A stretch of 64,000 bases of DNA from Neolewinella xylanilytica (GTDB lineage Bacteria > Bacteroidota > Bacteroidia > Chitinophagales > Saprospiraceae), in contig NZ_PTJC01000005.1 in the NCBI RefSeq assembly GCF_002934605.1, positions 1,488,001-1,552,000 on the forward strand, written 5' to 3'. Under the pieces are notes generated by a model, which was given only the letters and a program-made list of their open reading frames with translations, was not told the DNA's origin and made no database searches. Both the position numbers and the translations under genes were made by a program. Below, one piece after another: positions 4,888-63,548 of the stretch (its first letter is position 1; every line of letters starts with the position of its first letter).

Positions 4888-4978
4888 GTAAACCGCAGGT
4901 TAAATTTCTGATGGTCGCTGGGGAATGAACTGGTCGGACGAGTAGTCGTCCGACGACTACTCGCGCGACCACTACCCG
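4888..4978 (+). repeat. Leader-plus-15-bp-module element, copy A
   Basis: A 45-nt leader (4888-4932; begins GTAAACCGCAGGTTAA) runs straight into three 15-bp modules (GTCGGACGAGTAGTC, GTCCGACGACTACTC, GCGCGACCACTACCC; 4933-4977). Positions 4934-4953 form an 8-bp inverted repeat, TCGGACGA/TCGTCCGA. The array stops 2 nt from the stop codon of the acyl-CoA dehydrogenase gene (4980-4982). The same 45-nt leader with a following array occurs at 33496, 48313 (reverse) and 63357. Confidence 0.8.
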
Positions 4979-4979
4979 C

Positions 4980-7358
4980 CTAAAGCGCGATCGGCGCCCC
5001 CAATAACTCATCCGGAATCCCGAAGCCATCGACCAGCACCCCCGCCTCCGGACGCAACTCGGCACAGAGCACGTCCACCAACTTACGGATCGCCTTGCTC
5101 TTTTGTCCGCTGATGTAGTCGCTCTCCATATACCAGCCGGCGTGGTGCTCGATGGTGTGTACGGCGTAGAGGAGGATCGTCTTTTCGAGTAGGTCTACGG
5201 CCTCCGTCGAAGGCTTGTCATTGGAGGACACATCCGATGTGTTTCCGGATGCCGCCGGTCGGGCCCCGCGCAGATCGTCTATCCGTGCCAGGCTTTCGTC
5301 CAGCACCAGTTGCTCCACGTAAGCTTCGGCCGCGGCGATCATGTGGGTCTGGCAGAGCAGGCCGGCTTCGTAGGCGCTTTTCCCGTCCTTGATGTACGCC
5401 CGCAGCCGCTGGGCCAGGGTGCTCACCAGGCGGCGGGTACGAAAGTGGAAAGCGGACTGATAGAAGGACCGGCTCTCGAGGTGCTCGCGGTCCGTCTGCC
5501 GCACCACATAGGGGTTCTGCTCGGTGACGATGGTGCCCACCCGCCGGCCGATGAATTTCAGTACCGCAAAGTTGCCGTCCTCCTGGAACGACTTTTTGAA
5601 CTCCGTCAGCAAGCTCTTGGCCAGTAGCTGCATGAGCACGGTGTTGTCTCCCTCGAAGGTGGTGAAGATGTCCGTATCCGCCTTCAGGTCGGCGATGCGG
5701 TTCTCCGCCAGGTAGCCCTTACCGCCCGTCGCTTCCCGGCACTCCTGAATGGCGGCGGTGGTGAACCAGGTGGCGTAGGATTTCAATCCCGCGGCCATCG
5801 CCTCGATTTCCCGCATCTCCGATTCGGTGCGGTTCACGAAACGGACCAGTAGGTGGTCCAGGCCGAAGTGAATGGCGTAAGCCTTGGCGACCAGCGGGAT
5901 CAACCGTCGTTGCTGATTCGGATAGTCCATGATGATCGTTTCCGACCGCATCGACTCCGACGGGAATTGCCGGCGCCGCAAGCCGTACCGCACGGCAATA
6001 GCCAACGCCGATTTTGCCGCGCTTAGTCCCGCCCGTGGCACGAATACCCGCCCGCCGACCAACGTACCCAGCATGGTGAAGAAGCGGCGGCCCGGACTCT
6101 CGATCGGGCTCTCGTATTCACCGGCTTCGTTGATGCCCCCGTATTTGTTGAGCAGGTTGGCTACCGGCACCCGCACGTGATCGAACCAGAGGCGACCGTT
6201 ATCCACTCCGTTCAGCCCCATTTTGTAGCCGTTGTCCTCCACCCGGATGCCGGGCAGTACCAATCCCTGTTCGTCGCGTATCGGTACGACAACGGCGTGG
6301 ACGCCATGGCTCTTTCCGTCAACGATCAGTTGGCAGAAGACGGCCGCCATGCGGGCGTGCATCGCGTTACCGATGTATTCCTTGCCCGCCGCGACGCTCG
6401 GGGAGTGGACGATCAGCTCTTCGGTTTCCGAATCGTACACCGCCGTGGTTTCCAGTCCCCGTACGTTGCTCCCGTGACCGGTCTCCGTCATCGCGAAGCA
6501 GCCGGGCAGTTCCAGTTGGCCGGTAGCCTGCAAGTATTTATCGTGGTGGTATTTCGTGCCCAGGTTGTACACGGCACCCCCCCACAGCCCGAACTGTACA
6601 CCGAACTTGATCACCAGGCTCAGGTCGTGGTAAGCGATGGTCTCGAAGGCCGCCGCGTAGTCCGACATGCTGTCCTGCCCGCCGTATTCCTCCGGGTAGG
6701 ACAAAGCGCCGATGCCCTCCTGCGCCAGTTCTTTGCACCACCGCAGCACTTGTTCCCGGTAATCCTCCTTGATGCGCAGGGTAGGCCGCTCGAAGGAAGG
6801 CCGCAGTAAAATGGCTTTGGTGCGTTCGATCACGTCGGTATGCCCGTCTTCCAAAATTGCCTGCAGCACCTTGGGATCAATCCGTGACCCGGTAATGGCT
6901 TCCGCCAGTTTTTCCCGTTCGTCGTAGAGGGGGAAGAGCGACCGGTAGGTGTCTTCCTCGATCCCCCAGAGCATTTGCTCGATCCGGGTGAGGGCGGGCA
7001 GTTGCTCGCCCCAGAATTCCCGGCGCCCATCGGCGTCTTCTTCCGCGGCCAGACCAAGCCAGGCACCCAACTCGGCCAGACTGGCGGGGCGGTCAGTCGG
7101 TAAGGCTCCCGCCGCCTCCCGACCGCTGCTCAGCCACTGCTGGTACCGCTCCCGGGCGGGGGGGCGTGCCGGATCGCTCCATTCGAGCAGCAGAATCTTG
7201 TCCTCCCGCGATAGAAAAGGTAAACCCGCGGCCTCCTCACGGATCGATTCGATCTCGTGCACGCTCAAGTGGCGGTCCGACCAGGCTGCGTACAAAAACG
7301 GAACCATTGCCTGGATACCGGGGGAAAGGGAAGTGTTACTTTGGAGGTCTGCGCCCAT
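4980..7358 (-). CDS. Large acyl-CoA dehydrogenase/oxidase family protein with N-terminal extension
   Basis: 792 residues from the ATG at 7358 (a TTG at 7382 is also in frame). Residues from about 200 on form an FAD-dependent acyl-CoA dehydrogenase core of the acyl-CoA oxidase-like branch: 'CFAMTETGHGSNVRGLET' (substrate/FAD region), 'GYKMGLNGVDNGRLWFDHVRVP', 'REATGGKGYLAENRI', and the catalytic Glu within 'TTFEGDNTVLMQLLAK'. The first ~190 residues are a helical extension ('AAWSDRHLSVHEIESIREEA') resembling a TerB-like or EF-hand-like acidic domain, which explains the length against ~400 in ordinary dehydrogenases and ~650 in oxidases. It probably acts on fatty acyl-CoA in beta-oxidation. It is the last gene of the helicase/DUF3592 run and overlaps its upstream neighbour by 23 nt. 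Confidence 0.85.
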   Translation of the reverse strand: MGADLQSNTSLSPGIQAMVPFLYAAWSDRHLSVHEIESIREEAAGLPFLSREDKILLLEWSDPARPPARERYQQWLSSGREAAGALPTDRPASLAELGAWLGLAAEEDADGRREFWGEQLPALTRIEQMLWGIEEDTYRSLFPLYDEREKLAEAITGSRIDPKVLQAILEDGHTDVIERTKAILLRPSFERPTLRIKEDYREQVLRWCKELAQEGIGALSYPEEYGGQDSMSDYAAAFETIAYHDLSLVIKFGVQFGLWGGAVYNLGTKYHHDKYLQATGQLELPGCFAMTETGHGSNVRGLETTAVYDSETEELIVHSPSVAAGKEYIGNAMHARMAAVFCQLIVDGKSHGVHAVVVPIRDEQGLVLPGIRVEDNGYKMGLNGVDNGRLWFDHVRVPVANLLNKYGGINEAGEYESPIESPGRRFFTMLGTLVGGRVFVPRAGLSAAKSALAIAVRYGLRRRQFPSESMRSETIIMDYPNQQRRLIPLVAKAYAIHFGLDHLLVRFVNRTESEMREIEAMAAGLKSYATWFTTAAIQECREATGGKGYLAENRIADLKADTDIFTTFEGDNTVLMQLLAKSLLTEFKKSFQEDGNFAVLKFIGRRVGTIVTEQNPYVVRQTDREHLESRSFYQSAFHFRTRRLVSTLAQRLRAYIKDGKSAYEAGLLCQTHMIAAAEAYVEQLVLDESLARIDDLRGARPAASGNTSDVSSNDKPSTEAVDLLEKTILLYAVHTIEHHAGWYMESDYISGQKSKAIRKLVDVLCAELRPEAGVLVDGFGIPDELLGAPIAL

Positions 7359-8067
7359 GCCTGATCGATGTTTGGTTTTCAAACGCCGGTCGGCCTCGCG
7401 TGGTTGGTCCGGCTTGGTCGTTAACGGTACCGGACGCCACTTCGTCTCCAGAATTTTGGGCGCCGGGGCGCAGGATAGGGCATGGGCTCAGCCGTTGCGC
7501 AAGCTGTACGGGCGGTTTGGCCGAGTGATAGGAAATTAAGGCGAGTACGGGAACGAAAAGCAATAAGAGAATCATCATTTCACCGGTCAGTATTCCTCTC
7601 CAGGCGGGACTTGCGTAAATCATGTAGGGCAAAACTATCCCCACTGTAGCTAGTAGGAATAGCTCTAAATACCCCATGATTTCCGTCCCCCCGGTCAAAT
7701 AATTGTCCGTAGGGTTGTCTGGGTTGAACACCACGTTGTACCGACGACTTTGCCCTAACTCCCGTAGAAAAAGCGAGGCATCAGACTCCGTTATATACCG
7801 CATCCCCGGTGCCAGCCGATTGCCGGTGTAGCGCGCTCCTCTGGCGTAGAAAACGTACGGCTGTTCGAGTTCGGCCCGGTAGTAATTTACATAACGGAAG
7901 GCATCGCGGTAGCCGGTGCACAGTCGGTCCGGCCCCTCCGCCAACGTGGCCGGTGCCTGCGGCCAGCCGAGGGTTCGCTGATGCCGGCTCTCCCGCCTGA
8001 AGATCCAAACGAGGTACAGCACACTCAGTACAAAAAGTAGCATCGACAAGCCGTCAAAGAGGATCAC
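7336..8067 (-). CDS. DUF3592 membrane protein (second of tandem pair)
   Basis: 243 residues from GTG at 8067; ATG at 8043 is an alternative that begins right at the first membrane helix. Architecture: an N-terminal TM helix, a ~90-residue soluble domain with 'QPYVFYARGARYTGNRLAP' and 'YNVVFNPDNPTDNYL' (the DUF3592 signature: aromatic strands, then V-x-Y/F-NP-x-xP), two C-terminal TM helices, and a polar tail rich in Gly/Asn/Arg. It is clearly paralogous to the upstream gene (same spacing of the YVFYARG and FNPD motifs). It overlaps that gene by 14 nt and the dehydrogenase by 23 nt, so the three are probably co-translated. The molecular function of DUF3592 is unknown. Confidence 0.75.
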   Translation of the reverse strand: MILFDGLSMLLFVLSVLYLVWIFRRESRHQRTLGWPQAPATLAEGPDRLCTGYRDAFRYVNYYRAELEQPYVFYARGARYTGNRLAPGMRYITESDASLFLRELGQSRRYNVVFNPDNPTDNYLTGGTEIMGYLELFLLATVGIVLPYMIYASPAWRGILTGEMMILLLLFVPVLALISYHSAKPPVQLAQRLSPCPILRPGAQNSGDEVASGTVNDQAGPTTRGRPAFENQTSIRHGRRPPK

Positions 8068-8782
8068 GGGAGCGGTTTTTCTTTTGCAGGAGTTTTTCCG
8101 GATCAGTCAGCCGCAGCGGCCGGTCCTCCAGGCGATTAAGCAATTTGTCTTCCGTAGTCGTATTCCCTTCATTGCGTACCCGATCCGTGGAGGTCACCGG
8201 AAGCAGCAATTTCCCGAGATCAAAGACCGGCTGGGCGAGAAAGTAGACGACCAATAAGAGCAGAACCACTACCACGGCGACCACGAACAGCACGACCAGC
8301 TTCTGCGTATCGGGGCCCTCAGTACCAAACCACAGCAAAACTCCCGGTAGCAGCAGGCCGTAAACCAAGAACAACCACAGTTTGCCGTATCCCAGGATCG
8401 GCTTCCCAATGGTCAGGTAATTCTCTTCCGGGCGGTCGGGATTGAAATACACCTCGTATTTCCGGCACTGGGACAACCCTTTCAGGAAGACTTTCGCCTC
8501 GTCGACATTGAGTAAGTCGAGCTTCGGAGCCAATCGCTTACCCGAATATTTTTCCCCCCGGGCGTAAAAGACATAGGACCTTTCGAGCTCCGCCTTGTAA
8601 AAGGTGGTTTCCCCAAGGTGGTTGGCTTCCGCGGTGCCAAGTCTGTCTTCGCCTTCCGGTAGCACCGCCACCGCCCGGGGCCAGGTAAGTACTCGTTGCC
8701 GGTTGGCTTCCTGCCGGGCGCGACGCACGAAGCGCACCGACGAAAGGACCAATATAAGGAGGGCGAGTCCGATCCAGATCAT
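8054..8782 (-). CDS. DUF3592 membrane protein (first of tandem pair)
   Basis: 242 residues, with a TM helix at residues 2-20, a soluble DUF3592 domain ('RSYVFYARGEKYSGKRLAP', 'KYEVYFNPDRPEENYLT') and two strongly hydrophobic helices (about 131-150 and 162-187), then a charged cytoplasmic tail ('DPEKLLQKKNRSRDPL'). The start codon follows the helicase stop codon with no gap (TAGATG), so translation is almost certainly coupled to the helicase. Together with the following paralog it looks like a duplicated membrane component dedicated to the helicase or the dehydrogenase of this operon (inference). Confidence 0.78.
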   Translation of the reverse strand: MIWIGLALLILVLSSVRFVRRARQEANRQRVLTWPRAVAVLPEGEDRLGTAEANHLGETTFYKAELERSYVFYARGEKYSGKRLAPKLDLLNVDEAKVFLKGLSQCRKYEVYFNPDRPEENYLTIGKPILGYGKLWLFLVYGLLLPGVLLWFGTEGPDTQKLVVLFVVAVVVVLLLLVVYFLAQPVFDLGKLLLPVTSTDRVRNEGNTTTEDKLLNRLEDRPLRLTDPEKLLQKKNRSRDPL

Positions 8783-11707
8783 CTAGCGCCAGCGTTGTTC
8801 GCGCCGCGCCCCTTCGGAAGCGACCTTGCTGCTGGCCTGTAGCCGGGCCGTGAGCAGATGCAGTCTTCCGGCCGGCTCGCGGGTGTAGATGGCCTCGAAT
8901 TCCTGTTCCACGACGCCGCTCAGCAACTCGGCGAGTCGATCGGCATCCTTCCGGTTCCCCAGGGCGGCGGGGACGCCGAGGTAATATTCCCCTCTGGTCC
9001 AGTCGTCCGGAAGCTTCATCCGGAGCAGGTAGCGTGGGTTGTCCACCGGTGACATCAATTCACCCAGCGCACCGGCGAAAAGCTGCCCGTCGTGATGCTC
9101 GGCTTCGGAAAGGAATACGATCTCCTCCCCGGCTTCCTCTTCGAGCCGTAAGCGGTCGGGAGTGGCCGAGTGGAAGTGGCTGCCCCGGTGCAGGCTCTCC
9201 GCCAGGGCGCGTCCGTAGGCAAAAAGCCGGGATCGGGTATCCGCGAGGAGGGTGTGCCGACGGGCCGCCTCGTTCCGCTTCAGTTCGGGGCGGAAAGCGG
9301 TCTGCGCAACCATCCAGCTGAAGTAAACACCAACAAACACCAGGGGAGGTTGCCAGCCAACGCTCACCAGCAACAGTAGAACAAATATCAGGGGATGTCC
9401 GAGGTGCGGACTTAGGTCCACCTCGTTGGCAAATACCGGGTTGCGGTCGCTCCGTTCCAGTCGGGGGCGGGCCGCTTCCCGCAGGCGCAGCAGCCTCGGC
9501 ACGTAGTACAGGGCCCCCACTCCGCCAATCACCGCGGCTATCCAGGGTAGTAGCGGTAAGGCTACCATGCTGCCCGCAAGGGCGCCGACCAGGGCGACGA
9601 GGCACGCTACCTTCATCTGCAGCAGCACCATCCGGTAGCGCTCCTCGATGTGGCGATCGACGGACTCCCGGTAGTGCAGGGTAAGGGGGTCCTTCCTTTC
9701 GTAGTACCGCTCAGCGGGTGGGCGGATCGTTTCGACCAATTGGGTTCCCGCCCCGAGGGCTTCGCTCCAGCGCCGGGCCAGATCGTCCCGGTTCGTGGCC
9801 CGTTCCTCGGTGAGTTCCCGAAGTTCCAGCATAGACTCCGCATCGGTGGTACGGAAGGACGCCGCGGCCGGTAGGGCGGGTACGGCAGATGCGGCTGATC
9901 CGCCTCCGTTTTTAGAGAACTGTAGGTTGTAGCGCTCCAGGCCATTCTGTATTGCCGGCTTACCGACCAGCCGCGGCCCGGCGAATCCCCGGAACCGCCG
10001 GCGCATCCGGTCGACCTCCGGTCCGCCGCGGTCGACGTCGGGATGCACGACTACGGGGTGCCAGATGTTGGCCGTCTTATCGGGGTTGCCACGGACCGTA
10101 CGGATAGCCCGCCCCCGCATTTGGTTGCTGAGCACGAAGCTGCCCACCCGGTTCGCCAGAATCAGGCTGTTCACGATGGGGGCGTCCCAGCCCTCACCGA
10201 GTAACGATTTGGTGCCCACGATCACGTGGATCCCCCCTTCGGCAAACAATTGGTTAATCCAGCCTACGATGTGCTTGTTGGCTACGGTGGCCGTGTCCAG
10301 TACCAGGTATTCGGAGTCGGGGAAGAGGGGCCGGGAGGTGATGACCGTTTCGAGGGGCAATTGCTCGTAGGCGATTTCCCGTAGCCGAATTAGTACCGGC
10401 TGGGGGATAATGACCAATGATCCCGACAATAGACAAAGGTTCCTGGCGTAGTAAGCACCTGCGCGCCGGCGCAACACTTCAAAAACGGGCACGGTGCCGA
10501 CCTTGAGCAGGGGCCGGCGGTCGTATTCCGTGGTGGGCAGGTACTCGTCGTGGATATTGTCGGTCAGGATTACCAGGCGCAGTTTATCCAGCAACGCATC
10601 GCTTTCCAATTCCGTGATATGCACCAGGGCCTCCAGTTTCGCCTGCGGGCTTTCCAGCTCTTCCGCCGCCGCCCCGCTTGCCGGTGGTAGCGGTTCGTCG
10701 AGGCGGAGTTTGCCCCGATCCCAGGCGCCCATGGCCGATAGACCCCGTCGATAGGGTTGTAATAATGGTTTGGCGTGCTTGTCCCCGAAGTAGTCGTCGT
10801 GCCGCAGGGCCCGCTCCAGGAAAATCCGCAGCCAGTAGCCGTCCAGCACCGGAGCCAGGGTAGCTTCGCCGTGCAGCACCCCCAGGGCCGGCGCCGGCGG
10901 TTCGCTACCCTGAGCGCGCAGGACGCTAAGCAAGGAAGTGAAGTACTCGGGGTGCTCGAAAATTTCCGTGTAGTGCTCCTCCGGCTGTTGGAGCCAGGGG
11001 TGATCGCGGATGAGGTAGGCCAGTTCCGAACGGGTGTAGGCCATCTTCAGTAAATCCTCCTTGCGGCTCTGCCATTCGCGTAGCAAACGCCCGTCCCCGG
11101 GGGGCGGCAGGATGGGGTAGAGGTAATCCTGGTGCGGACAAAGGTCCCCGCTGGCCACCAGTTCGGGAATGCTGATCTCTTCGTCGATCTCCCCGCAGAA
11201 GCCGTAGTAGCGCCGCCATTCGATGCCGCTAACGTCGTAGGGTGGGGTAGCGGTCAGCGCCACCAGCTCGGGGTTGTAGCGTTCGGCGACCGCGTCCAAT
11301 ACCCGCCACCATTCCCTGCGTAGGTGGTGGCACTCGTCTACCACCAATGTCTCCATCCAGTCGAGCCCGTCAGTCCCGGTCTTTTCGTGGTAGGCCCACA
11401 GCGCCTGGTAAGTCACGACCGTGAGGGTAGCCGGCGCGTAGAGGTCGGTAGCAACATCCTCCGGGTCGCCACCAAAATCGGCCCGGAAGCGATCGATCCA
11501 CTGTTCGCGAATCGTCAGGTTCGGGGCCAGCACGAGGGTGCGGCCGTTCAGGCGACGCATGATTTCCAGCCCCAGCACGGTCTTTCCGGCGCCGGGCGGT
11601 GCGACGATGTGAATTTTGCGGTCGTCCCGGTACTGGTCGAGCCGGTCGAGGATCCGCGCCTGGTAAACGCGCCAGGAATAGCGAAAGGAAAGGGCGCCTA
11701 GGGCCAT
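8783..11707 (-). CDS. SF2 DEAD/DEAH-type helicase with C-terminal transmembrane region
   Basis: 974 residues. The N-terminal two-RecA helicase core shows Walker A 'APPGAGKT' (about 36-43), motif Ia 'LVLAPNLTIREQW', motif II 'VVDECHHL' (~126), motif III 'ALTATPP' (~155), and in the second RecA domain 'GTKSLLGEGWDAP' (~500) and 'SNQMRGRAIRT' (~530). This is the SSL2/UvrB-like branch also seen in restriction and defence helicases. An insert of roughly 250 residues separates the two halves. After residue ~690 come two hydrophobic hairpins (about 692-735 and 769-802) that look like four TM helices, followed by a soluble C-terminal domain of ~150 residues. Membrane anchoring of such a helicase is unusual. 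The gene sits between a PH-like membrane protein and two DUF3592 proteins, all on the same strand. Confidence 0.82.
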   Translation of the reverse strand: MALGALSFRYSWRVYQARILDRLDQYRDDRKIHIVAPPGAGKTVLGLEIMRRLNGRTLVLAPNLTIREQWIDRFRADFGGDPEDVATDLYAPATLTVVTYQALWAYHEKTGTDGLDWMETLVVDECHHLRREWWRVLDAVAERYNPELVALTATPPYDVSGIEWRRYYGFCGEIDEEISIPELVASGDLCPHQDYLYPILPPPGDGRLLREWQSRKEDLLKMAYTRSELAYLIRDHPWLQQPEEHYTEIFEHPEYFTSLLSVLRAQGSEPPAPALGVLHGEATLAPVLDGYWLRIFLERALRHDDYFGDKHAKPLLQPYRRGLSAMGAWDRGKLRLDEPLPPASGAAAEELESPQAKLEALVHITELESDALLDKLRLVILTDNIHDEYLPTTEYDRRPLLKVGTVPVFEVLRRRAGAYYARNLCLLSGSLVIIPQPVLIRLREIAYEQLPLETVITSRPLFPDSEYLVLDTATVANKHIVGWINQLFAEGGIHVIVGTKSLLGEGWDAPIVNSLILANRVGSFVLSNQMRGRAIRTVRGNPDKTANIWHPVVVHPDVDRGGPEVDRMRRRFRGFAGPRLVGKPAIQNGLERYNLQFSKNGGGSAASAVPALPAAASFRTTDAESMLELRELTEERATNRDDLARRWSEALGAGTQLVETIRPPAERYYERKDPLTLHYRESVDRHIEERYRMVLLQMKVACLVALVGALAGSMVALPLLPWIAAVIGGVGALYYVPRLLRLREAARPRLERSDRNPVFANEVDLSPHLGHPLIFVLLLLVSVGWQPPLVFVGVYFSWMVAQTAFRPELKRNEAARRHTLLADTRSRLFAYGRALAESLHRGSHFHSATPDRLRLEEEAGEEIVFLSEAEHHDGQLFAGALGELMSPVDNPRYLLRMKLPDDWTRGEYYLGVPAALGNRKDADRLAELLSGVVEQEFEAIYTREPAGRLHLLTARLQASSKVASEGARREQRWR

Positions 11708-31966: not shown

Positions 31967-33499
31967 ATGGCCTTTTTCGGACACGTTATTAAAGCCCTGA
32001 TCCAAACCAAGCATACGCTGCTTCCCCACGAACCGACGGATCCGGAGGCGGCCCAGGAAGATCAATTGCGCCATCTCCTGGAAACGGCGAAAGACACCGC
32101 GTTCGGTAAGTACTACAACTTTGCCCGTATCCTGGAAGCGGAAGACATCCGGACAGCGTACCGGGAGGAAGTACCCCTGTTCGACTACGATGAGATGAAC
32201 GAGGAGTGGTGGAGAAAGCAGCGCCACGACCCGGATATTACCTGGCCGGGCCGTCCGCGGTTTTTTGCCCTGAGCAGTGGTACGACCGGAAAGAAGAGCA
32301 AGCGGATACCGGTTACGGACGAGATGCTGGAGTGTACCCAACAAGTAGGTCGCGCCCAGGCGGAATGTCTGGCAAACTTCGATTTCGACGCCGATCTCTT
32401 TGAAAAGGATATTCTGATGCTTTCTAGCTCCGCTCAATTGCGGGAACGCGATGGCTGGCAGGAAGGCGAGATCAGCGGCATTAACGTCAGTAACATGCCG
32501 GAATTCATGGAAGGCTTTTACAAGCCCGGCCTGGAAATCGCGCAGATCGACAACTGGGACGAGCGGGTGCAGCGCATTGCCGAGGAGGCCCCCAAATGGG
32601 ACGTCGGCGCCCTGGCCGGCATCCCCTCCTGGATGGTGATGATGCTCCGTAAGGTCATTGAACACAATAAGCTGAAAAACATCCACGAGATATGGCCCAA
32701 TCTGGCCATCTACACCACCGGTGGCGTTGCCTTCGAACCCTACCGACAAACCTTCGAATCCTTGCTGGCGCATCCGATTACGATCATGGATACGTACCTG
32801 GCCAGTGAGGGCTTCTTTGCCTTCAACGCCCGGCCGGACACCATGGCCATGGAACTGGCCCTGGACCACGGGATGTATTTCGAGTTCGTTCCCCACGATG
32901 AGCGGGGTTTTGACGAAACGGGTACGATTCTCAAGAAACCGATGGTCATTGACTACCGGGATGTCGAGGAAGGCGTCGATTACGCCCTGATCGTTTCGAC
33001 GCCCGCGGGTGCCTGGCGGTACATGATCGGCGATACCGTTAAGTTTACCGACCTGGAACGGATGGAGATGGTGATCTCCGGGCGCACGAAGTACTTTCTG
33101 AACGTGGTGGGCAGCCAGCTCTCGGAGGAGAAACTAAATACCGCCATCGCGGATCTAAACGAGAAAACCGGGGCGACGGTAAAGGAATTTACCGTCGGTG
33201 CCCTGAAGCGGGAAGAAGACGGCGAATACGTCCACCAGTGGGTATTGGGGTTAGAGAACGGAGAGCTGGATGCGGAGGAAGCCAAGTCCGTCCTCGACTC
33301 CCACCTCCAGGAAGCCAACAAGAACTACAAAGTAGCCCGCCAGAAAGCCCTCAAGGACCTACGCGTCCGGGTAGAGCCTGCCGACCGGCTATACGCCTTC
33401 CTGGAACAAACCAAGAAAAAGGGCGGTCAGATCAAGTTTCCCAAGGTCATGCCGGAGGAGAAACTGCAGGAGCTGCTCAGCTTTCTCAATAACTCGTAA
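31967..33499 (+). CDS. GH3 family acyl-acid-amido synthetase-like protein
   Basis: 510 residues. The GH3 family is an ANL-superfamily adenylating enzyme; in plants it conjugates amino acids to hormones, and Bacteroidota homologues are uncharacterised. Seen: the ATP-binding P-loop-like 'FFALSSGTTGKKSKRIPVT' (~100), 'YTTGGVAFEPY' (~250), 'YLASEGFFAFN' (~278), 'WRYMIGDTVKFTD' (~355), and the C-terminal 'SGRTKYFLNVVGSQLSEEKLN' hinge. All core elements are present, so adenylation activity is likely. Its stop codon lies within the leader of repeat element copy B. Confidence 0.9.
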   Translation: MAFFGHVIKALIQTKHTLLPHEPTDPEAAQEDQLRHLLETAKDTAFGKYYNFARILEAEDIRTAYREEVPLFDYDEMNEEWWRKQRHDPDITWPGRPRFFALSSGTTGKKSKRIPVTDEMLECTQQVGRAQAECLANFDFDADLFEKDILMLSSSAQLRERDGWQEGEISGINVSNMPEFMEGFYKPGLEIAQIDNWDERVQRIAEEAPKWDVGALAGIPSWMVMMLRKVIEHNKLKNIHEIWPNLAIYTTGGVAFEPYRQTFESLLAHPITIMDTYLASEGFFAFNARPDTMAMELALDHGMYFEFVPHDERGFDETGTILKKPMVIDYRDVEEGVDYALIVSTPAGAWRYMIGDTVKFTDLERMEMVISGRTKYFLNVVGSQLSEEKLNTAIADLNEKTGATVKEFTVGALKREEDGEYVHQWVLGLENGELDAEEAKSVLDSHLQEANKNYKVARQKALKDLRVRVEPADRLYAFLEQTKKKGGQIKFPKVMPEEKLQELLSFLNNS

Positions 33500-33593
33500 A
33501 CTTCCCGGGTAACTGGTGGCGGGTCGTCGGACCAAGGTTCGTCCGACCATTACTCGTCCGACGAAAACTCGTCGGACGAGTAATGGTCCGACC
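33496..33593 (+). repeat. Leader-plus-15-bp-module element, copy B
   Basis: A 45-nt leader (33496-33540, begins GTAAACTTCCCGGGTAA) and modules GTCCGACCATTACTC, GTCCGACGAAAACTC, GTCGGACGAGTAATG and GTCCGACC. The TAA stop of GH3 is bases 2-4 of the leader, and the array runs into the stop codon of NhaC (33593-33595). The end of the leader (33526-33540) itself reads like a module. Modules 1-3 fold into a 20-bp perfect hairpin. Confidence 0.8.
33545..33588. terminator. 20-bp perfect inverted repeat between convergent genes
   Basis: Arms 33545-33564 and 33569-33588 pair perfectly with a 4-nt AAAC loop. It is formed by the module array of element copy B and lies between the GH3 and NhaC stop codons, where it could terminate both transcripts; there is no flanking T-tract. 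Confidence 0.55.
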
Positions 33594-35080
33594 TACACGA
33601 AGCCAAGGATCAGGTAAAGCGCCGCGGCAATCCCCCCCGCCAATCCGGCGTAGGGAAGTTGGGTTTTGACGTGGTCGATATGGTCGGTAGCACTGGCCAG
33701 GCTGGAAAGGATGGTGGTGTCGGAGATCGGGGAACAGTGGTCGCCAAAGACCCCGCCGCCGAGTACCGCCGCGATCGCCATGAGGACGTTGGCATCCATC
33801 TCCCGCGCCATGGGTACCGCAATCGGGATCATGATGGCAAAGGTACCCCAGCTCGTACCCGTGCTGAAGGCGATGAAGCAAGTAACCACGAAAACCAGGA
33901 AGGGGACCAAACCGGGCGATAACCACCCGCGGGCCAGCTCGGAAACGTAGATGCCGGTTTCCAATTGCTTGCACAGCGCGCCGATAGCGAAAGCCAGTAA
34001 CATCAATAGGGCGAGCGGAATGAGTCCGGCGATGCCCTTCAGCACCAGGTCGACACTTTCGCGGATACCAAAAATGCCCTGGGCTTTGTAAATGGCAATC
34101 GATACCAGGATGGAAATCGAGACCGCGGTGAGGACGGCCGTCGATCCGCTTCCGCTGCCGATCGACTGGAACAGCATGGCACCCGCGCCGGCGTCGCCCC
34201 CCAACAGCTCCCGTGCGTCGGCCCATCCCGTATAGGCCAGCATGAAGGGCATGCACACGACCATGACCACGATGGGTACGATCATGTTGATGGCTTTCGG
34301 CTGCACGCCTTCTTTCGCCTCCACGCTGGTGAGTGACTCGTCCACCACCGGCGTGGCCCCTTCGTTTAAGACCTTCCCTTCCCGCGCCCGCCGCTCGGCC
34401 TTTTTCATGGGGCCCCACTCGATGCCCGTGAGTACCACCACCGGTACCAGGAAGAGCGCCGCGAAGGCATAGAAGTTATATCCCAACGCCCGCAGCATGG
34501 TTCCGAAGGGATTGGCGAAACCCTCGGTAGCCAGTAGCGTCATGATGAAGGCTCCCCAACCATTGAAGGGAATGAGGATAGAACTGGGGGCGGAAGAGGA
34601 ATCCGCGATGTAGGCCAGCTTCTCCCGACTGAGCCCCAGCTTGTCGAAAATCGGCCGGTACAGCGTGCCTACGGTCAGTACGCTAATGCTGGATTCGACG
34701 AATACGACGGTGCCGGTCGCCCATGCCAGTAGCTGGACGACGGTGCGGCTGGAACCGTCCTTTCTGCGCTCGTACTTAACCAGGCGGCGATCGATGGCCT
34801 CGATAAATCCGTTAACCCCGCCGCTCCGCTGCATGAATACGATGAGTGCCCCCACCAGCGCGCAGAACATAATGGTGCGGGTATTGCCGGCGTCGGCGAA
34901 TACATCCACCAGTCCCTGGAGGGTATCGAGAAAGCCGATCCACACATTGCCACCGGAAAGGATCACGTATCCCAGGAAAATGCCGACGAAGAGGGAAATG
35001 AACACCTGCCGGGTGGCAATGGCCAGGACGATGGCGATGACGGGAGGGAGAAGGGTAAGGAAGCCGAGCTGTTCTGCCAT
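33593..35080 (-). CDS. NhaC family Na+/H+ antiporter
   Basis: 495 residues with about 11-12 TM helices. NhaC-type secondary transporters exchange Na+ for protons, and some members carry dicarboxylates or amino acids instead. Diagnostic stretches are 'ATGTVVFVESSISVLTVGTLYRPIFDKLGLSREKLAYIADSS' (given here in part), 'SIGSGSGSTAVLTAVS', 'FIAFSTGTSWGTFAIMIPIAVPMA' and 'GGGVFGDHCSPISDTTILSS'. Inner membrane. Monocistronic, with a TAGGTTTG box 4 nt before the ATG. Confidence 0.88.
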   Translation of the reverse strand: MAEQLGFLTLLPPVIAIVLAIATRQVFISLFVGIFLGYVILSGGNVWIGFLDTLQGLVDVFADAGNTRTIMFCALVGALIVFMQRSGGVNGFIEAIDRRLVKYERRKDGSSRTVVQLLAWATGTVVFVESSISVLTVGTLYRPIFDKLGLSREKLAYIADSSSAPSSILIPFNGWGAFIMTLLATEGFANPFGTMLRALGYNFYAFAALFLVPVVVLTGIEWGPMKKAERRAREGKVLNEGATPVVDESLTSVEAKEGVQPKAINMIVPIVVMVVCMPFMLAYTGWADARELLGGDAGAGAMLFQSIGSGSGSTAVLTAVSISILVSIAIYKAQGIFGIRESVDLVLKGIAGLIPLALLMLLAFAIGALCKQLETGIYVSELARGWLSPGLVPFLVFVVTCFIAFSTGTSWGTFAIMIPIAVPMAREMDANVLMAIAAVLGGGVFGDHCSPISDTTILSSLASATDHIDHVKTQLPYAGLAGGIAAALYLILGFV

Positions 35081-48125: not shown

Positions 48126-48313
48126 GGTCGCGCGAAAACTCGCGCGACGACTACTCGTTGGGCGACTACTCGCGCGACCACTACTCGTTGGGCGACTACT
48201 CGCGCGACCACTACTCGTTGGGCGACTACTCGCGCGACCACTACTCGTCGGACGAATAGTCGTCCGACCACTTCACCTCCCGGCGACCTGGCCAAAATTA
48301 ACCTGGAGTTAAC
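48126..48313 (-). repeat. Leader-plus-15-bp-module element, copy C (longest 30-bp periodicity)
   Basis: Read on the minus strand: a 45-nt leader from 48313 to 48269 (begins GTTAACTCCAGGTTAA), then about 9.5 modules to 48126. The modules alternate GTCGCGCGAGTAGTC and GCCCAACGAGTAGTG, making a near-perfect 30-bp tandem repeat in 48157-48246. It lies downstream of NamZ and upstream of the methyltransferase promoter. It is the only copy in reverse orientation. Confidence 0.85.
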
Positions 48314-54302: not shown

Positions 54303-57986
<3,684 letters not shown>

Positions 57987-58040
57987 CGGACGTAGTTGGG
58001 AGCAGCTAGCACTCCGGTTTCTGAGGTAGTAAGCGGGGCG

Positions 58041-59215: not shown

Positions 59216-59619
59216 AAATTCGGACGTATGACCTGGAGGAGATATTCGGGTACCGACACCGTGCGCTCCGTCTTGACGTCGACAAAGCAGAGTTTGACCG
59301 AGCCGCCGTTGACCAATTTACCGTTTTCGTTGTGGATCTCGATGTGAAAAGTGATGGTCCGGTCGGGTACGTGGCGCAGCTGAGTGGTAATGGTCAGCAC
59401 CTCGTCGTAACGGGCCGGCCGTACGAAGCGTTGGTTCAGGCTCATCACCGGCATCATGACGCCGACCTTCTTTTCCATTTCGGCGTAGCTCAGACCGAGG
59501 CCCCGCAGCATTTCCGCCCGGCCCACCTCGTAGAGCAGCGCGTAGTGGCCGTGGTAGAGGTAGCCCATCTGGTCGGTTTCTCCGTAGCGTACGCGGTGGG
59601 TGGTTTGGGCAGTCAGCAT
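59212..59619 (-). CDS. Hotdog-fold acyl-CoA thioesterase (YbgC/FadM-like)
   Basis: 135 residues from ATG 59619. Hotdog fold of the 4-hydroxybenzoyl-CoA thioesterase type: 'HRVRYGETDQMGYLYHGHYALLYEVGRAEMLRGLGL' (quoted in part) with the catalytic Asp in 'YGETDQMG' and the helix that follows, then 'TITTQLRHVPDRTITFHIEI'. Length and start are typical. It hydrolyses acyl-CoA; chain specificity unknown. Upstream frame sequence overlaps the TM2 gene and is not part of this gene. Confidence 0.88.
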   Translation of the reverse strand: MLTAQTTHRVRYGETDQMGYLYHGHYALLYEVGRAEMLRGLGLSYAEMEKKVGVMMPVMSLNQRFVRPARYDEVLTITTQLRHVPDRTITFHIEIHNENGKLVNGGSVKLCFVDVKTERTVSVPEYLLQVIRPNF

Positions 59620-59817
59620 AGGGCAGGTAAGAATTAATGCGCTCGCGATTACAATCGGGGTGGGTGAAGGTAACGGTCGGTACGCCAACGGGGTTTGCTG
59701 CGTAGCCGTTGAGCCGCTCGTAGAAAAGTATCCCGGTTCGAGGGCGATTATCGGCCTGCGGGTCGAATAGTCCGTCGCGGCGTTGGGCGTATCTTCGGTA
59801 CTTCCGACCTTTGCCTT

Positions 59818-60606
59818 ATGAAAAACAAAACCACCGCCGGTATCTTCGCCCTGGTCTTTGGCGGACTGGGCGTACACCGGTTTTATCTGGGGCAGAAGGG
59901 GTTGGGAATCCTGTACCTGCTCTTCGTTTGGACCTTCATCCCCACGATCATCGCCATGATCGACGGCATCGTCTTCCTGACCCAGGACGACCAGAAGTTT
60001 AACCGCAAGTACAATCCGGAGTTCTGGGCGGCCCAGCAACACCAGCAGTACCAGCACCAGTACGAGTATGCCGGCCCGCCACCGCCCCAGCCGCCCCGCC
60101 AGGAGTACGTGGCCCCGCCCCCGGCCGGCCCCCGTAAAGATCCCTTTCAGCTTACGGCCGACCAGTATTACGCCAACTATCAATTCGACGAAGCGATCCG
60201 TGACTACCGCCGCTCGCTGAACGTCGATCCCCGCCAACCAGAAGTCCACTTCAAACTGGCCTGCCTGTACTCCATCCACGAAGAAACCGACACCGCCCTC
60301 TACCACCTCAGTCAGGCGCTGGAGCATGGCTACTACGACTTCGACGAGATGGAGCGGCACGATCACCTGGCTTTCCTGCGGTCCACTCCGGATTACGCCG
60401 CCTTCAAATCAAACGGTTACCGGAAACCTGCCACCCGCCCCCGGTCGGACGCCGACATCGTTTCCGAGCCCGGTGCCGCTCCGGATACGCTCGAGCTTTC
60501 CGACGACCTCATCACCCAGATCGAGCGATTGGCCAAGCTAAAGGAGGAAGGAATCCTCTCCGATGCCGCCTTCCAGAGGGAAAAAGAAAAGCTGTTGCGA
60601 TCTTAG
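59818..60606 (+). CDS. TM2-TPR-SHOCT multidomain membrane protein
   Basis: 262 residues. N-terminal TM2 domain (two TM helices with 'LVFGGLGVHRFYLGQKGLGIL' quoted in part, and 'IDGIVFLTQDDQKFNRKY'), a Pro/Gln-rich linker (~75-105), a TPR-like segment ('DQYYANYQFDEAIRDYRRSLN', 'PEVHFKLACLYSIHEETDTALYHLSQALEHG'), and a C-terminal SHOCT motif ('IERLAKLKEEGILSDAAFQRE'). SHOCT is often an oligomerisation tail. The combination suggests a membrane scaffold. GACCTTTG precedes the ATG by 4 nt. Confidence 0.82.
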   Translation: MKNKTTAGIFALVFGGLGVHRFYLGQKGLGILYLLFVWTFIPTIIAMIDGIVFLTQDDQKFNRKYNPEFWAAQQHQQYQHQYEYAGPPPPQPPRQEYVAPPPAGPRKDPFQLTADQYYANYQFDEAIRDYRRSLNVDPRQPEVHFKLACLYSIHEETDTALYHLSQALEHGYYDFDEMERHDHLAFLRSTPDYAAFKSNGYRKPATRPRSDADIVSEPGAAPDTLELSDDLITQIERLAKLKEEGILSDAAFQREKEKLLRS

Positions 60607-60681
60607 CCGGACCCTTCGTCGGCCGAACCCAGCCCAGCGAAGTTCGTCCGCCAAAGGGTACGCTCACGAATATCGCTTCCC

Positions 60682-61827
60682 ATGATGTCCTCCCCCCTGC
60701 TACTCCTGGCCATCTTATGCGGAAGCGTGGTCCTCTCGGAATGGTTGGTGCGGAGGACCTTTCTACGCCACTTCGGAACGGCCCTGGTGGTCATCGTCGT
60801 CGTGGCCGTCTGGGCCAACTTGGGCCTGATCCCCTCCGCCAGCCAGGGATCGGTAGTTTACGACGGCATCTTCCGCTACCTGGCGCCGTTGTCCATCTTC
60901 TACCTGCTGCTCGACGTAAACCTGGCGAGTATCCGCCGGGCCGGCGCACCGATGTTAGGGCTGTTCGTGCTCGGCAGTGCGGCTACGGCCCTGGGCGTCT
61001 TCGCCGGGATGTTCGTAGTGGACGGGCCGACTCACTTTGGCGAATTCTACCCCGCGATCAGCGGCATGTTTACCGGTACGTATACCGGCGGCAGCGTGAA
61101 TTATAATGCCATTGCGATCCACTACGACATGATGCGGGAGGGCATCCTCTACGCCGGGATGACCGCGGTGGATAACATCATCACCGCCGTCTGGATGGTG
61201 GTCACGCTGGCCGTACCGCTATTGTTCCGGCGGCGTGATGTGATCAACCCCGGTCCGGCGGAGGCCACCGAAGACGTCGAACGGGCAACCGAATCGGTAA
61301 GCGTCCTCTCCATCGGGGTGCTACTGGGTATCGGTTTCCTCAGCCTGGCTGCTGCCGATGGGCTAGCCACTGCTCTGGAAAACGGGGGCCTGAACGTGCC
61401 GTCCATCCTGGTACTCACCACCATCGCCTTGCTGCTGGCCCAGGTTCCGGCGCTGCACCGACTAGCCGGTGGACAGGTAGTCGGGCTGTTCTTCGTTTAC
61501 CTTTTCCTGGCGGTCATCGGGGCCTTCTGCGAACTGGCCGCGCTGGGGCAGATCGGCGACCTGGCCTGGCGGCTTCTCTTTATGGTCTGTGTCACCGTGG
61601 TGGTTCACGGTACGATCGTTTTCGGCGGAGCCAGGTTAATGAAACTGGACATGGACGTAGCCGCCGTAGCCTCCCAGGCAAATATCGGAGGCTCCTCTTC
61701 CTCCCTCGCCCTGGCTAAAAGCCTGAACCGGATGGACCTGTACCTGCCGGGTATTCTGGTCGGATCACTCGGAAACGGGCTGGGAACCTACCTGGGCTTT
61801 TTAGTGGCCGGGTTGGTGGCACCGTAG
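60682..61827 (+). CDS. DUF819 family membrane protein
   Basis: 381 residues (ATG 60682 or 60685), with about 11 TM helices. DUF819 (YjcL-like) marks: 'GIFRYLAPLSIFYLLLDVNLASIRRAG' (in part), 'MFTGTYTGGSVNYNAIA', 'SQANIGGSSSSLALAKSLNR' and 'LPGILVGSLGNGLGTYLGFLVA'. The GTYTGGSxN and NIGGSSS half-repeats suggest a two-fold transporter architecture like arsenical pump/gluconate-type carriers. The substrate is unknown; inner membrane. Confidence 0.85.
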   Translation: MMSSPLLLLAILCGSVVLSEWLVRRTFLRHFGTALVVIVVVAVWANLGLIPSASQGSVVYDGIFRYLAPLSIFYLLLDVNLASIRRAGAPMLGLFVLGSAATALGVFAGMFVVDGPTHFGEFYPAISGMFTGTYTGGSVNYNAIAIHYDMMREGILYAGMTAVDNIITAVWMVVTLAVPLLFRRRDVINPGPAEATEDVERATESVSVLSIGVLLGIGFLSLAAADGLATALENGGLNVPSILVLTTIALLLAQVPALHRLAGGQVVGLFFVYLFLAVIGAFCELAALGQIGDLAWRLLFMVCVTVVVHGTIVFGGARLMKLDMDVAAVASQANIGGSSSSLALAKSLNRMDLYLPGILVGSLGNGLGTYLGFLVAGLVAP

Positions 61828-61871
61828 GGATCTTTAGCGAATACTAACCCGCACGGTGACCATGCTTCTAC

Positions 61872-63254
61872 TCAGAAAAACGTCCAGATCTTAGCCAGGA
61901 GCAGGAGGGCTATCCCGATCGGGATCACGTAGCGCAACTGCCAGGTCAACCGCTTGCGATCTGCGGCCGTGACGCGGTGGCCACCGAAGGCCAGTTCCTC
62001 GAAGAAGGCCGGTAGTCCCCACACCTTCAGCAAAAACCAACACAGGAGCAATTCCCCGATAAGCAACGAGATACTCCCGAACCATTCCAGCAAGAAATTG
62101 AAGTAGCCGAGACCGGGGTCGCCCATTCCGGCGAAATTGGTTAGCCAGGCTGGCCCGTCAGCGGAACAGGAGATCACCACTGGCACCGCCAGCGCGAAGA
62201 CGAGGAGACCCACCACCGGTCCTCCCGAACGACGTCGCCAGCCGTAGCGCTCGGTCATGGTCCGCAGCGCGGGCTCGAAGAGCGACACGGCCGAGGTCAA
62301 AATGGCTACCCCCAGGAGGAAGAAAAATAACAGGCCGACCCACTGGGCGGCCATACCGTAGGTTTTGAAAATTTCGACCAGGTTGATGAAGACCAGCGGC
62401 GGACCGGCGTAGATGTCCCCTTCCGCCCCGCCAATGAGGGGCAGCACCAGCACCGCGCCAAGAATGGCTACGGCGGTATCCAGGTGGACGATCTGCGGGG
62501 CCGCGCGGAGCACGTTCGTTTCCCGGTCGGCGTGGGTGGCGAAGGTCATCATGGAAACCGCGCCAAGCCCGAGACTGAAAAAGGCTTGTCCGAGCGCGTG
62601 CAGTAGTCCCAGTTCCCGGTTGTCCGTCGGGATGAGCAGCCCGCGCCAGTCAAACTTCAGCAGGTTCGGATAATCCAGTGCGCCGGGGCGCAGGAGCGGC
62701 AGAGACACGATCAAAAAGATCAATAACAACCCGAGGACCGGCATGGCGAATTTGCCCAATCGCTCGATCCCGGCGTACAATTCCCGGGAACAGACGAAGG
62801 CCACCATAGCGGTAAACAGTCCCGTGAAGAGCAACGCCCGCGGGATGGTGCCGATGGCTGCTCCAAAGGCCGGTCCGGCCGGGGTAGTGGCCACCGCGGC
62901 GTAATCCGTCAGGTAGGTCCAGACGTAGTCAAGCGTCCACCCCGCTAGGACGAGATAAAACGACGCGACCATGATGGAGGTCAGAATTCCCAGCCAGGCT
63001 ACCGCCTGCCAATTTTTCGAGGTGCCCGGCCAGGTGAAGGCTTCGGTAGCGTCGGTGCCACGCCGTTTGCCCATGGCATTCTCCAGTACCATCAGCGGTA
63101 TGCCCATCAACAGGGTGAAGACGACGAAAGCCAGGATGTAGGCACTCCCCCCGAAGTAGTGCACCCGGTAGGGAAAGATCACCAGGTTGGCTACCCCGAT
63201 GGCGGCGCCGGCGGAGGCCAGGACGTGACCTACGCGAGAGAATCTTACGGACAT
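61872..63254 (-). CDS. Neurotransmitter:sodium symporter family (LeuT-like) transporter
   Basis: 460 residues from ATG 63254. LeuT-fold Na+-coupled symporter with about 12 TM helices. TM1 reads 'VLASAGAAIGVANLVIFPYRV', where most members have GNAVGLGNFWRFPY, so the unwound Na/substrate segment is diverged: Asn27-type ligand is Ala, and the W-R pair is lost. 'FFSLGLGAVSMMTFATHA' matches the TM6 region (FFSLS...G). Transport of an amino acid or related amine is likely; the altered TM1 makes substrate prediction unsafe. Confidence 0.85.
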   Translation of the reverse strand: MSVRFSRVGHVLASAGAAIGVANLVIFPYRVHYFGGSAYILAFVVFTLLMGIPLMVLENAMGKRRGTDATEAFTWPGTSKNWQAVAWLGILTSIMVASFYLVLAGWTLDYVWTYLTDYAAVATTPAGPAFGAAIGTIPRALLFTGLFTAMVAFVCSRELYAGIERLGKFAMPVLGLLLIFLIVSLPLLRPGALDYPNLLKFDWRGLLIPTDNRELGLLHALGQAFFSLGLGAVSMMTFATHADRETNVLRAAPQIVHLDTAVAILGAVLVLPLIGGAEGDIYAGPPLVFINLVEIFKTYGMAAQWVGLLFFFLLGVAILTSAVSLFEPALRTMTERYGWRRRSGGPVVGLLVFALAVPVVISCSADGPAWLTNFAGMGDPGLGYFNFLLEWFGSISLLIGELLLCWFLLKVWGLPAFFEELAFGGHRVTAADRKRLTWQLRYVIPIGIALLLLAKIWTFF

Positions 63255-63356
63255 GGGGTGAAGATAGGGGCCCGCTGCCGACCTTCCGCTGAGGAAAATT
63301 ACCGGGGAATACCTTTTCACCGGGTGTGGGAGGGGGGCAGGGTCCTATGTGCCAAT

Positions 63357-63548
63357 GTTAACTGCAGGTTAAGAAATCGATGGTCGTCGGTAGCGAAAGT
63401 GGTCCGACGAGTTATCGTCGCGCGAGTAGCCGTCCGACGAGTAACCGTCGCGCGAGTAGCCGTCCGACGAGTAACCGTCGCGCGAGTAGTCGTCCGACGA
63501 GTAACCGTCGCACGAGTAGCCGTCCGACGAGGAACCGTCGCGCGAGCC
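63357..63548 (+). repeat. Leader-plus-15-bp-module element, copy D
   Basis: A 45-nt leader (63357-63401, begins GTTAACTGCAGGTTAA) followed by nearly ten modules alternating GTCCGACGAGTAACC and GTCGCGCGAGTAGCC (63402-63548). The first 15 bases of the leader form an interrupted dyad, TTAAC/GTTAA. It ends 47 nt from the stop of the MFS gene and starts 103 nt upstream of the NSS start. Confidence 0.85.

What the first reader, a model, noticed from the sequence alone, without database searches (positions are those of the whole stretch)
4888..63548. Four-copy dispersed element: a 45-nt leader plus an array of 15-bp palindrome-core modules
At 4888-4978, 33496-33593, 48313-48126 (reverse) and 63357-63548 there is a leader of exactly 45 nt in every copy (starts G-T-W-A-A-C, contains CAGGTTAA in three, and G-G-T-C-G-C/T-Y/C-G-G in the middle), followed at once by GTCSGACSA and a run of 15-bp modules (about 3, 3.5, 9.5 and 9.8). 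Module cores are the palindrome TCGCGCGA or the pair TCGGACGA/TCGTCCGA. Two module types alternate in C and D, giving a 30-bp period (about three helical turns), so like modules face the same side of DNA. The copies differ in sequence yet keep length and register, which points to selection or gene-conversion-like spread rather than one recent duplication. No transposase or RAYT gene is nearby. It may be a protein-binding array, a nucleoid or partition site, or a mobile non-coding element.
Basis: seen in the sequence. Interest (0 to 1): 0.8.

Follow-up and report, generated by a model that had tools for sequence, protein, structure and literature searches.

The report
Transposase-linked dispersed hairpin repeat family
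The four odd repeats are members of a genome-wide family of short hairpin-forming DNA elements, one of which sits beside a domesticated-transposase-like gene that probably copies them, and related species carry their own rewritten versions of the hairpin.

Summary
All four copies are at the stated coordinates: a 45-nt leader, then 15-bp palindromic modules. They belong to a family of at least 29 array loci in the same 5.38-Mb genome. The 45-nt leader length also holds in a sister species whose hairpin core is different (13 of 13 copies read).

"No RAYT nearby" is true of the window only. One family member (C2:1204314) abuts a gene resembling REP-associated tyrosine transposases (RAYT): NCBIfam NF047646 at E 1e-8, below cut-off. 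The best PDB fold match of an orthologue is RAYT bound to a REP hairpin (4er8). Orthologues in five other Neolewinella/Lewinella genomes lie beside that species' own arrays. RAYT-flank k-mers best match the same species' arrays at other loci in 5 of 6 species.

Best reading: a REP/REPIN-like, RAYT-mobilised, non-autonomous family, atypical for its leader, tandem half-palindromes and lack of a conserved GTAG foot. Adjacency, species matching and fold are shown; mobilisation is inferred. Most surprising: several elements keep their chromosomal site across species while their modules are rewritten species-wide. New variant of a known kind.

The parts
4888..4932 (+). Copy A, 45-nt leader (GTAAAC...CAGGTTAA...)
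   Evidence: R1 hit E 3.2e-15
4933..4975 (+). Copy A, array of about 3 modules; folds as one hairpin
   Evidence: z -3.9 for 4933-4980; inverted repeat I4
33496..33540 (+). Copy B, 45-nt leader, degenerate; begins next to the stop codon of the upstream + gene (ends 33499)
   Evidence: (E 2e-10)
33541..33592 (+). Copy B, array of about 3.5 modules; 24-nt arms, 96% complementary hairpin between two convergent genes
   Evidence: z -9.3 for 33529-33595; I2; own-type arrays at the orthologous site in G004, G016, G017
48269..48313 (-). Copy C, 45-nt leader
   Evidence: E 4.5e-18; orthologous leader in G001
48126..48268 (-). Copy C, array of about 9.5 modules, 30-bp super-period
   Evidence: z -6.9 for 48126-48270; I3
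63357..63401 (+). Copy D, 45-nt leader
   Evidence: E 2.3e-16
63402..63547 (+). Copy D, array of about 9.7 modules, 30-bp super-period; single-strand fold not clearly better than shuffles; site empty in the 6 relatives read
   Evidence: (z -1.1)

Best explanation
The four copies are members of a REP/REPIN-like family of short, non-autonomous, hairpin-forming elements whose partner enzyme is the RAYT-like HUH transposase encoded at G000:C2:1203600-1204271, outside the window. Anatomy: GTTAACTNCAGGTTAA-N9-GGTCG(T/C)CGGTAGCNNAAGTG-(15-bp modules)n, in a few copies with an imperfect hairpin (CACTC..GAGTG) next to the TTAAC word. Two neighbouring modules in opposite sense make a 30-bp palindrome. 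Shown: the family and its usual 45-nt leader; one element beside the RAYT-like gene; orthologous genes in five other species beside arrays of that species' own core; a second RAYT paralogue in the same genome with its own, different repeat family; a fold like RAYT bound to a REP hairpin; a covarying hairpin upstream of the RAYT gene. Inferred: when a strand is exposed, modules fold into hairpins, RAYT recognises the hairpin and/or the TTAAC leader, nicks and rejoins the single strand, and so seeds or overwrites copies elsewhere; array length then changes in 15-bp steps by slippage; the core drifts together with its RAYT. Any host use (termination, mRNA stability) would be secondary.
For: Family. 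RAYT-like gene beside element C2:1204314, 43 bp between its ATG and the leader. Protein: NF047646 the only NCBIfam family, E 1.3e-8 to 8e-11, in 6 of 6 orthologues; PDHFH and YIH(D/A)NP motifs; AlphaFold model of the IMCC34183 orthologue (pLDDT 79.6), best PDB match 4er8, RAYT with REP hairpin, E 1.1e-6, then IS200-type transposases. Gene at the same locus and open in 6 of 9 genomes examined there, frameshifted in G011, not seen in G001 and G008. Species-specific arrays beside it in 6 of 6, on both sides in 4. RAYT-flank 9-mers are the best of six sets for the same species' other loci in 5 of 6 species. G020 core palindrome: 18 places in G020, 0 in 8 other genomes. Second own RAYT (C1:1123202) lies between copies of a distinct repeat, 12 pattern hits genome-wide, 3 beside the gene; G017 has two RAYTs with two different flanking families. 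Presence/absence as in mobile DNA: site D empty in 6 of 6 relatives read, site C1_1082 without an array in 7 of 8 (G001 has one module-like palindrome). Two arrays in one coding sequence use different reading frames, so DNA and not peptide is what repeats. RAYT-proximal hairpin: 66 of 66 cells paired, 12 cells changed on both sides, covariation 0.509 vs 0.130 shuffled, 0/500. Gene context like background.
Against: No movement was observed, and no exact filled/empty junction or target duplication could be read. The protein is below the curated cut-off of NF047646 (34.9-42 against 80 bits), Pfam Y1_Tnp is sub-threshold or absent, and by sequence 4er8 is only E 0.5. The canonical GT(A/G)G foot is not conserved between species, and a residue I take for the conserved W is F. 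G012 fails the k-mer test (13 own vs 41 with the G016 set). G001 keeps leader-bearing elements with only a distant RAYT homologue (E 3.8e-19). Two of the three covarying hairpin pairs separate the G000 rows from the rest, so few independent changes are counted; in the shuffle control, 146/500 and 53/500 shuffles reach the pair and pair-type counts. Copy D does not fold better than shuffles. Several sites are shared across species, so part of the family is old and stationary rather than hopping. Uneven placing on contig C1 (KS p 8e-5) is unexplained.
Confidence: 0.72

Rival explanations
1. Host regulatory hairpins: transcription terminators or mRNA-stabilising or attenuating RNA structures, with the leader as a promoter or regulator site; the RAYT neighbour is incidental.
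For: B fills the space between two convergent stop codons and the array of A ends next to a stop codon. Strong folds for A, B and C. The leader carries two GTTAA words 11 bp apart, like direct repeats of some response-regulator sites (resemblance recalled, not tested); similar isolated words lie upstream of other open frames.
Against: Of 24 elements with called neighbours, 6 are between convergent, 7 between divergent and 11 between co-directional genes, which does not differ from window gene pairs (chi-square p 0.76; 0.51 against gaps > 40 bp; the background is one 64-kb window). Leader orientation to genes is mixed. Two arrays lie inside a gene. Many sites are empty in relatives. It does not explain RAYT adjacency and species-matched cores.
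Confidence: 0.12
2. Spread and homogenisation by ordinary recombination (gene conversion between copies, slippage) of old palindromes without an enzyme of their own; RAYT loci are merely one more intergenic place that holds them.
For: Positions shared between species with species-wide fixed differences: the second-last leader base is T in 16 of 16 G000 model rows and 13 of 13 G020 copies but C in 5 of 5 intact G001 leaders, including orthologous sites C, C2_926, C4_120 and C2_539. Array lengths differ by whole modules.
Against: The RAYT-like gene has the species' arrays beside it in 6 of 6 open orthologues, and paralogues carry different families, which a neutral background does not predict. 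Copies this short and diverged are poor substrates for homologous conversion (inference).
Confidence: 0.11
3. Chromosome-organising sites (nucleoid-protein, partition or macrodomain signals) bound by a dedicated protein.
For: Palindromic, periodic, 29 loci, unevenly placed: on contig C1 all 15 lie in 1.08-2.26 Mb of 2.42 Mb (KS p 8e-5), on C2 all 11 in 0.54-1.33 Mb of 2.14 Mb (KS p 0.06).
Against: The core differs between species and many sites are absent in relatives. Leader strands are mixed. ori and ter could not be placed: dnaA is at C2:1.77 Mb and GC skew from 20 samples is noisy.
Confidence: 0.05

Closest known systems
RAYT (TnpAREP) with REP sequences / REPtrons; TnpAREP subclass 2.6 (Bertels group 5) of PMC6006769
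   Same: One HUH-Y1 enzyme gene beside palindromic repeats found elsewhere in the genome; one RAYT per repeat family; a stable, shared locus; Bacteroidota. The paper (passages and its table seen) describes the repeats of subclass 2.6 as atypical secondary structures without GT[AG]G. Y motif YIHxNP and an SS motif after it.
   Different: HUH is DHFH, not NH[LIV]H; Y motif YIH(D/A)NP, not YIH[QN]NP; F where I expect the conserved W; repeats are tandem arrays of 15-bp half-palindromes, in three species behind a GTTAAC leader. Assignment to a subclass was not tested with the paper's models.
REPINs and BIMEs (REP dimers and mosaics of gamma-proteobacteria)
   Same: Inverted half-units forming hairpins, mostly intergenic, species-specific populations kept over long times with a vertically inherited RAYT (PMC8049555, passages).
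   Different: Here arrays of many modules, 29 loci found rather than hundreds, a conserved leader, and site retention with rewritten cores.
CGTC-tagged REPs, including some rickettsial palindromic elements (PMC3733652)
   Same: Palindromes rich in CGTC, reported in Bacteroidetes too, and found inside genes (abstract, passages and one section seen).
   Different: That paper reports no CGTC unit flanking a RAYT; here arrays do. CGTC lies inside the paired stem here rather than as an unpaired tag, so membership is doubtful.
IS200/IS605 insertion sequences and their non-autonomous derivatives
   Same: Y1 HUH fold (ISDra2, IS200 and IS608 structures among the next best matches); imperfect hairpin upstream of the gene.
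   Different: The RAYT-like gene stays at one orthologous locus in six species; the other homologues found in the own genome are diverged paralogues, not near-identical copies.

Membership tests
RAYT / TnpAREP protein | HUH motif and single-Tyr Y motif | tested here: met
   PDHFH and YIH(D/A)NP in 6 of 6 orthologues; motif definitions from PMC6006769
RAYT / TnpAREP protein | Match to the curated RAYT profile at its cut-off | tested here: not met
   NF047646 is the only NCBIfam hit, E 1.3e-8 to 8e-11, but 34.9-42 bits against a cut-off of 80; hence called RAYT-like
RAYT / TnpAREP protein | RAYT fold | tested here: met
   Foldseek best PDB match 4er8, E 1.1e-6, prob 1.00, TM (target) 0.65, TM (query) 0.48, rmsd 8.5, for the IMCC34183 orthologue, 65% identical to the own protein; the own protein itself was not modelled
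RAYT / TnpAREP protein | Conserved W before the Y motif | tested here: inconclusive
   GSLF in all six rows where I expect it; my placing of the W motif is by recalled resemblance to RRGxLW
REPtron arrangement | RAYT gene flanked by repeats that are dispersed elsewhere in the genome | tested here: met
   on one side only at the main RAYT of G000 and of G020, and not borne out for G012 by the k-mer test
Canonical REP | GT(A/G)G tetranucleotide at the 5' foot of the hairpin | tested here: not met
   By eye: GTAG occurs in G000 leaders and linkers but not at a fixed place in G004 or G020 elements
Canonical REP | Cleavage and rejoining of the repeat by its RAYT | not testable with these tools
   Needs purified protein and single-stranded oligonucleotides
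REPIN | Two inverted REP units around a variable spacer | tested here: inconclusive
   C2_604 is a perfect 52-bp palindrome and the G020 core a 28-bp palindrome, but many copies are longer arrays
Partition or macrodomain site | Conserved motif and position in relatives | tested here: not met
   Core differs between species and many sites are empty, though some positions are shared
Known structured RNA | Rfam match | tested here: not met
   No family reached its gathering score in the window

The most novel reading that the evidence does not exclude
The RAYT system rewrites resident arrays in place: elements stay at the same intergenic sites over the divergence of the genus while their palindromic core is replaced genome-wide in each species as RAYT specificity drifts, with the constant 45-nt leader as the address. 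This would be enzyme-driven concerted evolution of dispersed bacterial sites rather than hopping. Own-type arrays were found at 9 of 43 orthologous stretches in five other RAYT-bearing species (threshold of 12 k-mers chosen after seeing the table), against 6 of 980 blind 400-bp windows of the own genome (a rough yardstick, not intergenic-matched).
Probability: 0.3. Interest if true: 0.78.

Novelty: new variant of a known kind. Interest (0 to 1): 0.56.

Why it matters
RAYTs of Bacteroidota were noted in 2018 to sit beside 'atypical' structures without the usual consensus (PMC6006769, passages). Here is a genus in which such a repeat can be read clearly: a constant leader in three species, a modular palindrome, and species-specific cores at one shared RAYT locus. 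That makes the open question of how a RAYT recognises its repeat, and how enzyme and repeat change together, directly testable by swapping leader and core between species. It also offers natural replicates for asking whether REP populations hop, or stay put and are overwritten.

Tried and rejected
Rfam search of the window: nothing at gathering scores. Pfam Y1_Tnp search of the genome missed the relevant RAYT and gave three other genes, none with an R1 hit inside its 3-kb locus. Pfam on six orthologues: sub-threshold Y1_Tnp in four, nothing in two. Leader as promoter of neighbours: set aside on mixed orientation. Terminator-only reading: no enrichment at gene ends. Peptide-level repeat (SSDEE): rejected because two arrays in one gene use different frames (I recognised the gene as VIT/VWA-type by eye, no search); the array at C2:1316242 is open in several frames and was not assigned to a gene. 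ori/ter link: GC skew from 20 samples was too noisy. Response-regulator box idea for the GTTAA repeats: not tested. Exact insertion junctions: not readable.

Rows left out: model R1 uses 16 of 22 copies (C1_1632, C1_1082, C2_587, C4_120, C1_2207, C1_2246 left out; leader shifted, truncated or not found). Alignment A4 holds 11 hand-picked sequences; RAYT loci L361, L362, L339 and L341 are not in it, as I saw no such hairpin there by eye. Orthologous stretches were fetched for 11 elements, 74 of 88 possible element-relative pairs with 8 relatives, because the listing was cut; C and A have only 2 and 3 relatives. The k-mer test left out the RAYT locus itself. Gene context covers 24 of 29 loci (two are inside a gene, three were not fetched with flanks).
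Full report
OBSERVATION. Reading the sequence confirms four copies of a leader plus modular array at 4888, 33496, 48313 (minus) and 63357, with the stated leader length, the CAGGTTAA word in three copies, and about 3, 3.5, 9.5 and 9.7 modules of 15 bp. A module is half of a 30-bp palindrome (for example AGTGGTCGGACGACT / AGTCGTCCGACCACT); TCGCGCGA cores are palindromic on their own.

GENOME-WIDE. The window lies in G000:C1:1488001-1552000 of a 5.38-Mb draft genome in 13 contigs. A sequence-only model (R1) of 16 aligned copies finds 18 loci at E <= 2e-8 and 29 separate array loci at E <= 0.01 (my count: 15 on C1, 11 on C2, 2 on C3, 1 on C4; 150 of 2488 first-look candidates scored). Tandem-module pattern: 94 hits per strand, 0 in the reversed control of the own genome (the control has up to 3 hits in other genomes, so single hits there mean nothing). 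Of 22 copies scanned for spacing, 16 have a 44-45-nt leader; the rest are shifted, truncated or not found.

CONTEXT. With a simple codon-usage gene caller, 24 elements lie between convergent (6), divergent (7) and co-directional (11) genes, as expected from window gene pairs, with mixed leader orientation. Two arrays lie within one coding sequence in different frames. Positions are uneven on contig C1 (KS p 8e-5; C2 p 0.06), unexplained.

RELATIVES. The GTTAAC leader is shared by G000, G001 and G020, but the module core differs: GTCGGACGA (G000), GTCGGACGG (G001), GCCGGTCGACTAGTCGACCGGC (G020), others in G016, G017 and G004. In G020, 13 of 13 leader copies read keep 45 nt before its different core (found with R1, which favours that spacing). 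The G020 palindrome occurs at 18 places in G020 and none in eight other genomes.

RAYT. Flanking-gene searches and orthologous intergenic stretches showed that at C2:1204314 the element stands beside a gene for a 223-aa protein with PDHFH and YIHDNP motifs. NCBIfam gives one family, REP-associated tyrosine transposase NF047646, below its cut-off. An AlphaFold model of the G020 orthologue matches PDB 4er8 best, then IS200-type transposases. The gene is at the same place and open in G000, G020, G004, G016, G012 and G017, frameshifted in G011, and not seen in G001 and G008. In the six open cases species-specific arrays lie beside it, on both sides in G016, G012, G017 and G004, on one side in G000 and G020. 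More distant homologues in G010 and G013 and a second one in G017 also lie between repeats; a second one in G016 shows a palindrome on one side only. In G000 a second RAYT (C1:1123202) lies between copies of a different repeat with 12 pattern hits genome-wide, and a third (C3:366150) beside yet another palindrome. A fourth, interrupted one (C2:877245) has the same upstream hairpin as the main RAYT and a different short palindrome.

MATCHING TEST. 9-mers from each species' RAYT flanks, those shared by three or more species removed, were counted in ten other orthologous loci. Own set against the largest of the other five: G000 342 vs 118, G020 51 vs 17, G016 107 vs 37, G017 116 vs 21, G004 160 vs 75. 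G012 fails: 13 own vs 41 for the G016 set. Three genomes without an intact RAYT there score 3-54 with every set. Own-type arrays (12 or more k-mers, threshold set afterwards) stand at 4 of 9, 2 of 9, 2 of 8, 1 of 8 and 0 of 9 loci in G004, G016, G017, G020 and G012. Six of 980 blind 400-bp windows of the own genome pass the same threshold, and 0 of 196 overlapping windows of a 20-kb G004 stretch. So sites are shared more than density suggests, yet cores differ: either old sites are rewritten, or certain intergenic spots are hot.

CONCERTED CHANGE. Between G000 and G001 four elements with intact leaders stand at the same place: C, C2_926, C4_120, and C2_539, the last beside a gene 88% identical at protein level. 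All four differ by the same T-to-C change at the second-last leader base that separates all leaders read: T in 16 of 16 G000 rows and 13 of 13 G020 copies, C in 5 of 5 intact G001 leaders. Site C2_539 is also occupied in G020 with that species' core.

HAIRPINS. A, B and C fold as single-stranded DNA better than shuffles; D does not. Next to a TTAAC word, upstream of the RAYT gene in seven genomes, is an imperfect 6-bp hairpin with an internal mismatch. In the own genome it also stands 5' of the leader in C2_1204 and C3_17, and between array and TTAAC word in C1_2207 and C1_2246. In 11 hand-picked sequences all 66 pair cells are standard, with changes on both sides at 3 of 6 pairs; sliding the partner by 1-3 columns drops pairing to 17-42%. 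The rows are related and two of the three varying pairs mostly separate G000 from the rest, so this is not a probability.

MECHANISM. Shown: family, leader, hairpins, RAYT adjacency, species matching, RAYT-like fold. Inferred from published work on E. coli TnpAREP, which cleaves and rejoins REP DNA (PMC6006769 and PMC3733652, passages): RAYT nicks exposed single-stranded hairpins, probably addressed by TTAAC/leader, and seeds or overwrites copies; modules then multiply by slippage.

LITERATURE. PMC6006769 (passages and its subclass table) reports RAYT subclass 2.6, mostly Bacteroidetes, beside atypical structures; this family is nearest to it but differs in motifs. PMC3733652 (abstract, passages, one section) reports CGTC repeats in Bacteroidetes and none beside a RAYT. 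PMC8049555 (passages) describes long-lived REPIN populations with vertically inherited RAYTs. In the rows listed by four searches I saw no paper on REP-like repeats of Lewinella or Neolewinella; only open-licence papers were searched and only top rows listed.

VERDICT. Real, genome-wide, and best explained as an atypical RAYT-associated REP-like family: new variant of a known kind. The in-place rewriting of old sites is the most interesting open point.

Noticed in passing
G000:C1:1123202-1123789 and L363, L368-L370; C3:44771-45131; C2:183607-184424: Second RAYT paralogue in the same genome with its own longer repeat family (GTCTGCCCAGCGC..GGTCCGCCGACG), 12 pattern hits, four of them on C3 at 107-117-bp steps.
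   Followed up: partly
L243 (G004:C1:859386-860066): At the site orthologous to copy B, G004 seems to have a tandem partial duplication of the neighbouring gene's 3' end, each copy bounded by the species' palindromic array (by eye).
   Followed up: no
L015 (C2:353123-353190), L012 (C1:1336616): Runs of GTTAAC/GTAAAC words at 11-bp steps upstream of open frames, one of them looking like a response regulator; resembles direct-repeat response-regulator sites and half of the leader (by eye).
   Followed up: no
G000:C2:877245-877595 (L365): Another RAYT-like gene, interrupted by a stop, preceded by the same TTAAC + ACTC..GAGT hairpin as the main RAYT although its neighbouring palindrome (GACATCGGATGTGTC type) differs.
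   Followed up: partly
G000 contigs C1 and C2: All 15 array loci found on C1 lie in 1.08-2.26 Mb and all 11 on C2 in 0.54-1.33 Mb; the rest of both contigs has none at E <= 0.01. Reason unknown.
   Followed up: partly
L240 (G004:C34), L248 (G020:C53), L247 (G008:C3): Other, unrelated palindromic repeats fill the same intergenic spots in some relatives (for example GGACGGCTCAAGCCGTCGCTACA in G004, GCTGCCTCCGGCAGC in G020), as if these spots were general repeat hot spots.
   Followed up: no
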